From: a virus
DNA length: 20,083 nucleotides
Reading direction: 5' to 3' (one strand)
Virus record (IMG/VR): IMGVR_UViG_3300044491_002800
Span: 1 to 20,083 of that record
This document shows, piece after piece, positions 9,981-20,083 of the stretch. Position 1 is the first letter of the stretch; every line of letters begins with the position of its first letter. The notes below the pieces were generated by a model that was given only the letters and a program-made list of their open reading frames with translations, was not told the DNA's origin and made no database searches. The translations under genes were made by a program, and so were the position numbers.

Positions 9981-11831
9981 TTAAATAAACATTGGAGTAA
10001 AACCTTGATTGCTTTCTTGTGGGACATTCATCATATCATAATAAATATTCATCCCCCAGTTCCCTAAAACCAAAGCCGAATAGGAGTCCTTTCTCGCTCT
10101 ATCTACACCTTTTTGCCTCTTCAAATTAGAGGGCAAATCAAAGCTTTGAGTTCCTCCGTTAGAGCTAGAAACCTGTATTAGAGCGCATTCGGCTTTTGTT
10201 AAATCAATCATGTCTTTCTGATGTTCAATGAAGTCTATCATTTTTGCTCCAATATTTTTCTCATCTTCATATTTTGAGAATTTTAAATCTTTTATTGGTA
10301 TCTTTTTTGCTTTTTGCATAGAGTAATTGTCATCCATTGCGGTAGCTGCAAAATATAATCTTTTTCTATCAAATGCTGTTTGTAACATTTCGTTACCATT
10401 TCTAATCCAAACAGAGGTGGGTTTTCTTAGATAACATATGGTATTATCAGAAACATTGTATTGTCTTCTAGCTTCTTTGAGATCTTTTGTGTAATCGTGA
10501 GGGTTATCTAATCCCGCGTCAAATGTTCTTATCTTTAATTTATCTTTTTTAAACAGGTCACTTTCGTTGCATGAATTTATAAACTGAACGCCCCCGTTAT
10601 AGTCACCCACAATCATAATAACATTGAAGTGATCTAAAATATATTTGAAATAAGTCATGTGCTTCTTTAAATTTGTTCCAGGAAGCGCGTAACTATGAAC
10701 CAAGACACCTTTCTTCTGTTCTGGAAGGAGTTTAATTACCTGTATAGCAAAATCGTCAGATGCTTCGGATTCAGACCAAGATGGGTCAAATGCCAAAATA
10801 TACTCAGCGCCTTCTTCTCCAGCTACTTCAATAGATGGGGACTCTCCATCTTCAATTGTGCATTCGGCCATTTTGCTAATTTTAAAGTAACCAGCGCTAT
10901 CGTCTGTGAACTGAGCGTTAAACTCTCTATCAATTTGCGACTGACTCATTGTTCCTTTTGCTTGAGAAATCAAATTTTCATCATATAAAGCTTTTGGAGC
11001 GCAGTCATAACTAAACTGCATAATGCATCTCCTACCTTGGTTCTTTGCTCCAGGATTAAATATCATATTCTCATATGCTTGATACATTTTATAAAGATAT
11101 TCAAATTTGTAAGATGCGGATGATAAACCAATCATTTTATTTGATGGCCACTCGGTTCTCTCTTCCTCAGTCATTTTTCCAGCCGCAATCATAGCATCTT
11201 CGGCGTCTCTTATTTTTTGCCTTTCTGTGGGGTTTTCTACAACAGCCAAGAAAGGCATGATAACTTCGTTCAAAACCTTTTCTGGCATAAGTAGAAGCTC
11301 GTCAATGATGATTCTTTGAAAACGGAAACCACGAAGTTTTTCACCATCGCCAAGTGGTAAAGCGGTAATTCTGCTGCTACCAATTTGCATAGACCACTCG
11401 TCATTTGATTTGCTCACTTTGCCAATACACTGGCGAAATAATTCTGCTTTTTTATCTTGAGCTATATCTTCAATTTTTCTAAAGATCATTTTTGATTGCC
11501 TGAACGATTTAGAAATAATTCCAATGTGTACACCTTGATTTAACATAGCGTCCAACAAAGCAAAAATACCAGTCGAGAACGATTTCGACATACCGCGAGA
11601 CCAGATTCCTAAAAAGTAATCGTTCTCCATCATTGCTTTGACCGCCATATGTTGGAACGGAAATAACTCGATACCAGTAAGCAATTGAGTCGTAAATGTT
11701 ACATTGTCTTTTAAAAACTTGTATAATAAAATTTTTGCTTTAGTGTCTTCTAAATAACCTTCAGTATCTAAAATCTGCTGATTAATGGGCTCTCTTTTTA
11801 GAGGTTTTTGCTTTCCTAATTCCCAGCTCAT
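9981..11831 (-). CDS. terL: Terminase large subunit (616 aa)
   Basis: This is the packaging motor ATPase and nuclease. The ATPase half shows a variant Walker A (WSRGMSKS, residues 77-84), Walker B (IIIDE, 174-178) and a coupling motif SSAS (237-240). The RNase H-like nuclease half shows acidic residues in AFDPS (Asp349), VGDYNGG (Asp410) and the C-terminal KDSYSALVLGNW stretch (Asp582). The length of 616 is usual for the family. The gene has a strong SD, AAGGAGG (11836-11842), 4-5 nt before the ATG, unlike most genes here, and overlaps the nuclease gene by 4 nt (ATGA). The protein would cut concatemeric genomes and pump DNA through the portal encoded downstream. Assignment is firm; the class of packaging ends it makes cannot be read from the sequence. 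Confidence 0.97.
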   Translation of the reverse strand: MSWELGKQKPLKREPINQQILDTEGYLEDTKAKILLYKFLKDNVTFTTQLLTGIELFPFQHMAVKAMMENDYFLGIWSRGMSKSFSTGIFALLDAMLNQGVHIGIISKSFRQSKMIFRKIEDIAQDKKAELFRQCIGKVSKSNDEWSMQIGSSRITALPLGDGEKLRGFRFQRIIIDELLLMPEKVLNEVIMPFLAVVENPTERQKIRDAEDAMIAAGKMTEEERTEWPSNKMIGLSSASYKFEYLYKMYQAYENMIFNPGAKNQGRRCIMQFSYDCAPKALYDENLISQAKGTMSQSQIDREFNAQFTDDSAGYFKISKMAECTIEDGESPSIEVAGEEGAEYILAFDPSWSESEASDDFAIQVIKLLPEQKKGVLVHSYALPGTNLKKHMTYFKYILDHFNVIMIVGDYNGGVQFINSCNESDLFKKDKLKIRTFDAGLDNPHDYTKDLKEARRQYNVSDNTICYLRKPTSVWIRNGNEMLQTAFDRKRLYFAATAMDDNYSMQKAKKIPIKDLKFSKYEDEKNIGAKMIDFIEHQKDMIDLTKAECALIQVSSSNGGTQSFDLPSNLKRQKGVDRARKDSYSALVLGNWGMNIYYDMMNVPQESNQGFTPMFI

Positions 11832-18880: not shown

Positions 18881-18952
18881 TGTAGGGAGGTTAGGTAGCC
18901 AAAGGAGTCTCATAAGCTTCTTGAGCAGGTTCAATTCCTGCCCCTGCAACCA
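18881..18952 (+). tRNA. tRNA-Met (CAT) with an atypical D arm
   Basis: The acceptor TGTAGGG pairs with CCCTGCA, followed by ACCA. The anticodon arm GGAGT-CTCATAA-GCTTC gives anticodon CAT (18911-18913), and the T arm is GCAGG-TTCAATT-CCTGC. The D region (18888-18903) is short and does not form a normal D stem-loop; only a GGTT/AGCC helix with a 4-nt loop is possible. CAT could be Met, initiator Met or lysidine-modified Ile. The first pair is U-A, so it is not a typical C-A initiator. Confidence 0.82.
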
Positions 18953-19322
18953 TTTATAGTAGTATAATAATTTATAAATTTAATGGCTCTCTAAGCCAAA
19001 TATCAAATTAGAGTTAAACGTCTTGTAAAAATGGCGTCCAAACCAACTTCGGTTGAGAGGGGCGAGAAAGAATTTTTTTTGTTCTTTGAATTATAAACAT
19101 TGAGATTTATGATTCATATTACTCTCACCAGTGTGTGATCTGAAAGACTGATAGTATCGCGCTTCAGACATTAATCGATTATTCGTGTCGCGACTATCCT
19201 TCGGGTGAGAGACATTTTAGAACATACTACACGGTTAGGCGAGATAACTTCAAACGTGACTTAGCACTTACGTTCATTGGGTAATGTAAGTGCCTCTGGT
19301 ATGTTCATTCAATTTATTTTAT
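18953..19322 (+). ncRNA. 370-nt noncoding folded region between tRNA-Met and tRNA-Ser
   Basis: No credible gene lies here. Hairpins are visible throughout. CTCTAA (18989-18994) pairs with TTAGAG (19008-19013). CGTCC (19035-19039) pairs with GGGCG (19060-19064) around an AACC/GGTT hairpin, followed by T8 (19073-19080). An 8-bp outer stem CTCTCACC/GGTGAGAG (19122-19129 with 19204-19211) holds an inner GATAGT/ACTATC plus CGCG/CGCG helix. A second 8-bp outer stem GAACATAC/GTATGTTC (19220-19227 with 19299-19306) encloses a CACTTAC/GTAAGTG hairpin (19265-19271 with 19286-19292) and a GTTA/TAAC hairpin. The family is unknown. It may be one or several structured RNAs. Confidence 0.55.
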
Positions 19323-19410
19323 GGAGGAATGGCTGAGTGGCTTAAGGCGGCTGACTTGAAATCAGTTGACGTGAAAGCGTCCGTGGGTTCAAATCCTACT
19401 TCCTCCGCCA
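19323..19410 (+). tRNA. tRNA-Ser (TGA)
   Basis: The acceptor GGAGGAA pairs with TTCCTCC and is followed by GCCA. The anticodon loop CTTGAAA gives TGA. A long variable arm (GACG/CGTC type) marks it as serine class II, and the T arm is GTGGG-TTCAAAT-CCTAC. The length of 88 nt is normal. It reads UCA codons, favoured in AT-rich genes. Confidence 0.95.
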
Positions 19411-19414
19411 TTTG

Positions 19415-19491
19415 CGAGAAGTAGCGCAGTCTGGTAGCGCATCTGGTTTGGGACTAGAGGGCCGCAGGTTCGAATCCTGTCTTCTCGACCA
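19415..19491 (+). tRNA. tRNA-Pro (TGG)
   Basis: The acceptor CGAGAAG pairs with CTTCTCG, followed by ACCA. The anticodon arm TCTGG-TTTGGGA-CTAGA gives TGG. The T arm GCAGG-TTCGAAT-CCTGT is present. It lies 4 nt after tRNA-Ser, so they probably share one transcript. Confidence 0.95.
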
Positions 19492-19497
19492 TTTTAA

Positions 19498-19573
19498 GGT
19501 CGCATAGTTTTAATTGGCAAAACAGTTGATTTGTAATCAACCTTTCTCGGTTCAAGTCCGAGTGTGACCTCCA
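19498..19573 (+). tRNA. tRNA-Thr (TGT)
   Basis: The acceptor GGTCGCA pairs with TGTGACC (one G-T pair), followed by TCCA. The anticodon arm GTTGA-TTTGTAA-TCAAC gives TGT. The T arm is CTCGG-TTCAAGT-CCGAG. The CCA end is encoded. Confidence 0.93.
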
Positions 19574-19575
19574 TT

Positions 19576-19637
19576 TTATGTTGGGAATTGTCTGTGGTGG
19601 GCAATTTTAAAACTTTCTAACCCAACATAATATTTTT
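19576..19637 (+). terminator. Long hairpin between tRNA-Thr and tRNA-Glu
   Basis: A perfect 10-bp stem TTATGTTGGG (19576-19585) with CCCAACATAA (19621-19630) encloses an inner AATTGTC/GGCAATT hairpin (19586-19592 with 19600-19606), and a T run follows. It may be a terminator or partial terminator within the array, or a small folded RNA or processing signal. A weaker GTTAGT/ACTAAC pairing follows at 19648-19678. Confidence 0.5.
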
Positions 19638-19687
19638 CCTTGAGTTTGTTAGTTCTCATATATAAGACAAAGACTAACTAATTTTAT

Positions 19688-19765
19688 GCCCCTATCGTCT
19701 AGTCAGGTCTAGGACACCGCGTTTTCATCGCGATAACCACGGTTCGAATCCGTGTAGGGGTGCCA
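19688..19765 (+). tRNA. tRNA-Glu (TTC)
   Basis: The acceptor GCCCCTA pairs with TAGGGGT (first pair G-T), followed by GCCA. The anticodon loop TTTTCAT gives TTC, with a CGCG/CGCG stem topped by one C-A mismatch. The T arm CACGG-TTCGAAT-CCGTG is perfect. The D region has the CGTCTAG-type sequence usual for bacterial Glu tRNAs. Confidence 0.9.
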
Positions 19766-19767
19766 CT

Positions 19768-19877
19768 TTAATACGTGTGTAGCTCAGTTGGTAGATCGGT
19801 ATCCTGTTATGATGGTCAATCGCCGAAAAAGCACAGGCTCTACATGACGTGGGTTCAAATCCCATCACACGTATTAA
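19768..19877 (+). other. Aberrant tRNA-like element with a 12-bp acceptor helix
   Basis: A tRNA-type acceptor ACGTGTG/CACACGT, a D arm (AGCTCAGTTGGTAGATC, one stem mismatch) and a T arm (GTGGG-TTCAAAT-CCCAT, 19849-19865) are all present at normal spacing. A loop CTGTTAT (19804-19810) at the canonical place would give anticodon GTT (Asn), but on a stem with a G-G mismatch. About 33 nt of extra sequence lies before the T arm. Alternatively CCTGT/ACAGG (19803-19807 with 19833-19837) closes a 25-nt loop. There is no encoded CCA. Instead the acceptor helix continues to 12 perfect base pairs (19768-19779 with 19866-19877). It could be a decayed tRNA-Asn copy or a tRNA-like structured RNA. Confidence 0.6.
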
Positions 19878-19886
19878 TCATTTTAT

Positions 19887-19961
<75 letters not shown>

Positions 19962-20083
19962 TTTTACACAGGCGGTGTTGAAAGTAGAAACACTGCGTGG
20001 GCCAGCGTCCGAGGAAGGCGGAATATCGACTCGGTTAATTCTATGGCATTTTCGTGACCGTAACTTGCATAAACGCGGAGCGC
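19962..20083 (+). ncRNA. GC-richer folded noncoding sequence at the right edge (start of a larger RNA?)
   Basis: No open frame fits. About half the bases are G or C, well above the rest of the window outside tRNAs. GCGGTGTT (19972-19979) pairs with AACACTGC (19989-19996), and CCGAG (20009-20013) pairs with CTCGG (20030-20034). It may be the 5' part of a structured RNA continuing beyond the window. Confidence 0.4.

What the first reader, a model, noticed from the sequence alone, without database searches (positions are those of the whole stretch)
19768..19877. tRNA-like element with a continuous 12-bp acceptor helix, long insertion and no CCA
It keeps a nearly normal D arm and T arm but has about 33 extra nt between the anticodon arm and T arm (or a 25-nt loop on a 5-bp stem). 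The acceptor pairing runs five more base pairs where the 3' ACCA should be. The perfect complementarity of the extension suggests selection or a recent event rather than random decay. It lies between intact tRNA-Glu and tRNA-Asn and could be chargeable only after processing. Possible roles are a tRNA decoy, an RNase P substrate mimic or an inserted pseudogene.
Basis: seen in the sequence. Interest (0 to 1): 0.72.

Follow-up and report, generated by a model that had tools for sequence, protein, structure and literature searches.

The report
Sealed tRNA-like RNA in phage array
Marine phages carry, among their ordinary tRNA genes, a tRNA-shaped piece whose ends are zipped shut by five extra base pairs; two related phages keep the zip, one by a matched pair of mutations, so it is probably a small RNA that imitates tRNA rather than a dead tRNA, though what it does is not shown.

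Summary
Window 19768-19877 holds a tRNA-derived element with a perfect 12-bp terminal helix, a normal T arm, a D arm with one mismatch, about 33 extra nt and no CCA. Rfam's tRNA model scores it 43 bits (cut-off 29); ARAGORN misses it. None of 128 tRNAs in the fetched contigs has more than 2 leader/trailer pairs beyond the acceptor; this one has 5. The element is not private. Two other IMG/VR contigs carry it, in different tRNA neighbourhoods. One has an A-U to G-C compensatory change in the extension and an A-U to G-U change at the first acceptor pair; the third differs only in the variable part of the D loop. No ordinary tRNA was found in its place. The sample is only three near-identical copies, and function is untested. 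These arrays hold several further non-tRNA modules closed by helices, including a second CCA-less tRNA-like one, without Rfam families. Most likely it is a stable, non-chargeable tRNA-mimic RNA released by processing of the flanking tRNAs. The closest precedent is phage T4 species 1 RNA (rnaC). 'No CCA' alone means little: ordinary tRNAs in these arrays lack it too.

The parts
19768..19779 (+). 5' strand of the 12-bp terminal helix (19768-19772 extension, 19773-19779 acceptor)
   Evidence: kept in L103/L023 and L104
19782..19797 (+). D arm GCTC-AGTTGGTA-GATC, one C.U mismatch, G18G19 kept; loop length differs in L104 (TT to A)
19799..19815 (+). possible anticodon arm, loop CTGTTAT, anticodon GTT (reading a); alternative stem CCTGT 19803-19807 with ACAGG 19833-19837 (reading b)
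   Evidence: the interior is invariant, so no covariation test is possible
19816..19848 (+). extra about 33 nt replacing a normal variable region; contains GCTCTAC, which can pair with D-arm sequence GTAGA 19791-19795
19849..19865 (+). T arm GTGGG-TTCAAAT-CCCAT
   Evidence: invariant in three copies
19866..19877 (+). 3' strand of the 12-bp helix; occupies the place of discriminator and CCA
19878..19886 (+). array linker TCATTTTAT before tRNA-Asn, like the CATTTTA linkers after the other tRNAs
19574..19634 (+). neighbouring non-tRNA hairpin module between tRNA-Thr and tRNA-Glu; variants keep pairing (A-U to G-U)

Best explanation
It is a tRNA-derived small RNA module in a marine phage tRNA array. 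Shown: tRNA-like sequence and fold elements; a 12-bp sealed end kept in relatives; movement between array contexts. Inferred: it is transcribed with the array and released when tRNA-Glu's 3' end and tRNA-Asn's 5' end are matured, giving an RNA of about 110-121 nt. The sealed helix hides the place where RNase P, CCA addition and charging act, so it stays an uncharged, stable RNA. The T loop and D loop let it keep a tRNA-like elbow, so it works as a tRNA mimic that binds tRNA-recognising proteins (a sponge or decoy) rather than as an adaptor. The partner is unknown.
For: 12-bp helix. tRNA model score of 43 bits. Two relatives keep all 12 pairs, with A-U to G-C in the extension and A-U to G-U at the first acceptor pair. 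If the four substitutions between window and L103 were dropped at random, three or more in the helix with all pairs kept has p 0.003, and any compensatory pair p 0.015. The remaining differences fall at tRNA position 26 and in the variable D-loop site, as in real tRNAs. 0 of 128 tRNAs show more than 2 extension pairs. Different neighbours in L104 and L023. Leader/RCCA pairing is an RNase P anti-determinant with effects of orders of magnitude (PMC10731613). T4 rnaC gives precedent for a CCA-less, T-arm-bearing RNA annotated as small and stable in a phage tRNA cluster.
Against: Only three copies, about 97-98% identical, so the covariation is a single event; the tool's column-shuffle control is not significant (164/500). 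The whole-RNA folding z-score is modest (-1.98). The fold of the middle is unresolved. There are no expression data, and no partner protein or target was found.
Confidence: 0.5

Rival explanations
1. Decaying tRNA pseudogene: an insertion disrupted an ordinary tRNA, and the copy spread recently by array recombination; the extra pairing is chance or a leftover of linker sequence.
For: Copies nearly identical and so recent. An ordinary tRNA-Lys with the same acceptor and T arm and no extension exists in a Clostridium MAG contig (L130).
Against: The extension is kept with a compensatory change. No tRNA in 128 shows such an extension. No intact counterpart was found in viral contigs.
Confidence: 0.27
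2. Cis-acting array part: the sealed helix works as a spacer or insulator that orders processing of the neighbouring tRNAs or protects the polycistronic transcript.
For: Other modules in the same arrays are also closed by end helices, and stem-loops flanking a tRNA can enforce the order of RNase P processing (PMC10731613).
Against: A plain hairpin would do; it does not explain the kept T loop, D-loop Gs and invariant middle.
Confidence: 0.15
3. A working tRNA-Asn (GUU anticodon, 33-nt variable arm) made usable by trimming, unwinding of the end helix and CCA addition.
For: Reading a gives a full cloverleaf with U33 and anticodon GUU. CCA-less tRNAs exist in these arrays.
Against: A normal tRNA-Asn lies next to it in window and L023. 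Position 73 is A, whereas the window's tRNA-Asn has G73. Five extra pairs should block RNase P (PMC10731613).
Confidence: 0.07

Closest known systems
Phage T4 species 1 RNA (rnaC, NC_000866 70908-71046)
   Same: RNA annotated as small and stable in a phage tRNA cluster, with a tRNA-type T arm (CCGGG-TTCGAAT-CCCGG) near the 3' end and no CCA
   Different: 139 nt; not detected by the Rfam tRNA model; no 12-bp sealed helix seen; no significant match to our model (14.6 bits, E 4)
Ordinary bacterial or phage tRNA (RF00005)
   Same: Acceptor, D and T arm sequences; 43 bits
   Different: 12-bp acceptor, extra 33 nt, D-stem mismatch, 3' end paired
GOLLD and ROOL phage RNAs
   Same: Noncoding RNAs of unknown function encoded near phage tRNA islands (PMC12286853)
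   Different: Hundreds of nt, not tRNA-derived; no Rfam match in these arrays
Bacterial YrlA (Y RNA with tRNA-like module)
   Same: Noncoding RNA with a tRNA-like part
   Different: The weak hit (25.5 bits, cut-off 69) spans parts of two adjacent genes and is chance

Membership tests
Functional tRNA | Score above the Rfam tRNA cut-off | tested here: met
   43.0 against 29 bits
Functional tRNA | 7-bp acceptor with free 73-CCA 3' end (encoded or added) | tested here: not met
   Place of 73-76 lies inside the 12-bp helix
Functional tRNA | Regular anticodon arm and variable region | tested here: inconclusive
   4-bp arm with GUU loop possible, but a 33-nt variable region and rival folds of equal energy
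Functional tRNA | Aminoacylation | not testable with these tools
   Needs an experiment
T4 species 1 RNA | Encoded in a phage tRNA cluster, T arm, no CCA | tested here: met
T4 species 1 RNA | Sequence or structure homology | tested here: not met
   Model R1 gives 14.6 bits, E 4, on the T4 locus
T4 species 1 RNA | Stable RNA in infected cells | not testable with these tools
   No expression data for this phage
GOLLD/ROOL | Match to family covariance model | tested here: not met

The most novel reading that the evidence does not exclude
A new family of phage tRNA mimics with sealed ends, made in bulk with the phage tRNAs to occupy a host tRNA-binding protein such as a defence anticodon nuclease or a processing enzyme.
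Probability: 0.12. Interest if true: 0.75.

Novelty: new variant of a known kind. Interest (0 to 1): 0.45.

Why it matters
Phage tRNA arrays are usually annotated as lists of tRNAs. Here they also carry movable, helix-closed noncoding modules, one of them a tRNA with its end sealed. T4's tRNA-cluster RNAs C and D are, from general knowledge, still without a known role. A sealed, RNase P-resistant mimic would give a simple testable idea for why phages keep such RNAs.

Tried and rejected
DNA searches for the element in 50,697 phage records gave only tRNA cross-matches. L102 and the other loci are chance hits inside unrelated sequence. Antisense targets: no shared stretch above 17 nt apart from the element itself, the longest being loci chosen by those same patterns. 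YrlA match rejected as spanning two genes. The whole-spacer end-helix test was uninformative for spacers holding several modules. An intron reading was considered and dropped: no known phage system splices a 25-nt anticodon-loop insert (own knowledge). The search for an ordinary parent tRNA found only L130 tRNA-Lys in a Clostridium MAG. Paper searches for T4 species RNAs and for tRNA-like phage decoys gave nothing useful.

Full report
What is there. The window is a 20,083-base virus record with a phage large terminase gene at 9981-11831 and a tRNA array at 18881-19961. Its ends, 19768-19779 and 19866-19877, are perfectly complementary over 12 bp. The inner seven pairs are a tRNA acceptor stem and the outer five replace the discriminator and CCA. 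Rfam's tRNA model matches it at 43 bits with an insertion. The T arm is regular, the D stem has one mismatch, and about 33 nt are extra.

Is it more than chance. Among 128 distinct tRNAs in all contigs fetched, leader/trailer pairing beyond the acceptor never exceeded two pairs, even counting G-U; this element has five. Shuffling the spacer 300 times never gave as strong an end helix.

Relatives. Pattern scans of IMG/VR found two further copies: L103/L023 (contig 3300007539_000811) and L104 (3300021378_002206). L023 has the same order of tRNA-Glu, element, tRNA-Asn, although its tRNA-Asn is a different gene. In L104 the element follows another tRNA-like module and precedes the start of an atypical tRNA-Met sequence. 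The element is therefore a module that moves as a unit, bounded by the array linker CATTTTAT. Other arrays of the same phage group (L001, L003, L015, L036, L041) lack it.

Covariation. Alignment A1 shows these differences: columns 5/110 A-U to G-C in the extension; columns 8/107 A-U to G-U at the first acceptor pair; column 33 (tRNA position 26) G to A; and TT to A in the variable part of the D loop. All 12 pairs are kept in all copies. Placing L103's four substitutions at random gives three or more helix hits with all pairs intact with p 0.003, and any compensatory pair with p 0.015. With three sequences the column-shuffle control is not significant (164/500), so this is suggestive evidence resting on one event.

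Fold of the middle. Three readings have similar energies: a cloverleaf with anticodon GUU and a 33-nt variable arm (-23.9 kcal/mol), the CCTGT/ACAGG stem (-20.4), and a three-way junction using GUAGA/UCUAC (-23.8; the unconstrained minimum is -29.2). The interior does not vary between copies, so alignment cannot decide. The two changes outside the helix fall where real tRNAs tolerate change, which slightly favours the tRNA-like elbow.

Context. The arrays contain several non-tRNA modules closed by helices: 19574-19634, whose variants keep pairing; 19122-19211 and 19220-19306; an approximately 200-nt RNA starting near 19964, complete in L003 and L015; and a 182-nt CCA-less module ending in a tRNA-like part in L104 and L134. 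None matches an Rfam family at the thresholds used, except that L104 and L134 were not themselves scanned against Rfam.

Mechanism. [quoted passage not shown] A 12-bp helix without RCCA should therefore escape 5' maturation, CCA addition and charging. The likely outcome is a stable uncharged RNA released by maturation of its neighbours, as T4 species 1 RNA is annotated to be a small stable RNA in its tRNA cluster. What it binds is unknown; a tRNA-protein sponge is the most natural reading of a kept elbow with a blocked end. This last step is inference.

Verdict. It is most likely a conserved tRNA-mimic module, a new variant of tRNA-cluster-encoded phage RNAs, with a recent pseudogene as the main rival.

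Noticed in passing
window 19964-20083; complete in L003 4655-4859 (-) and L015: About 200-nt RNA-like element closed by ACACAGG/CCTGTGT, 97.5% conserved over the 122 nt in the window and found behind different tRNA-Asn genes; no Rfam match. Folding z-score is only -0.96.
   Followed up: partly
L104 7081-7262; L134 2538-2718 (-): Second CCA-less module ending in a tRNA-like part (T arm, 5-bp acceptor), 93% identical in two phages; T-arm and anticodon-arm changes look pair-preserving.
   Followed up: partly
L003 3902-4495 (-), L015 13717-14413 (-): Roughly 550-nt conserved noncoding stretch between tRNA-Gln and tRNA-Met, possibly a large ornate RNA; no Rfam hit.
   Followed up: no
L015 4482-4551 (+): tmRNA model hit above cut-off (54 bits) squeezed into 70 nt, as if only the tRNA-like domain of tmRNA were kept.
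   Followed up: no
window 18881-18952: Atypical tRNA-Met (29 bits) with a reduced D arm, conserved in several related arrays.
   Followed up: no
window 19122-19211 and 19220-19306: Two helix-closed modules inserted between tRNA-Met and tRNA-Ser, 99% identical in L104, absent from L023.
   Followed up: partly
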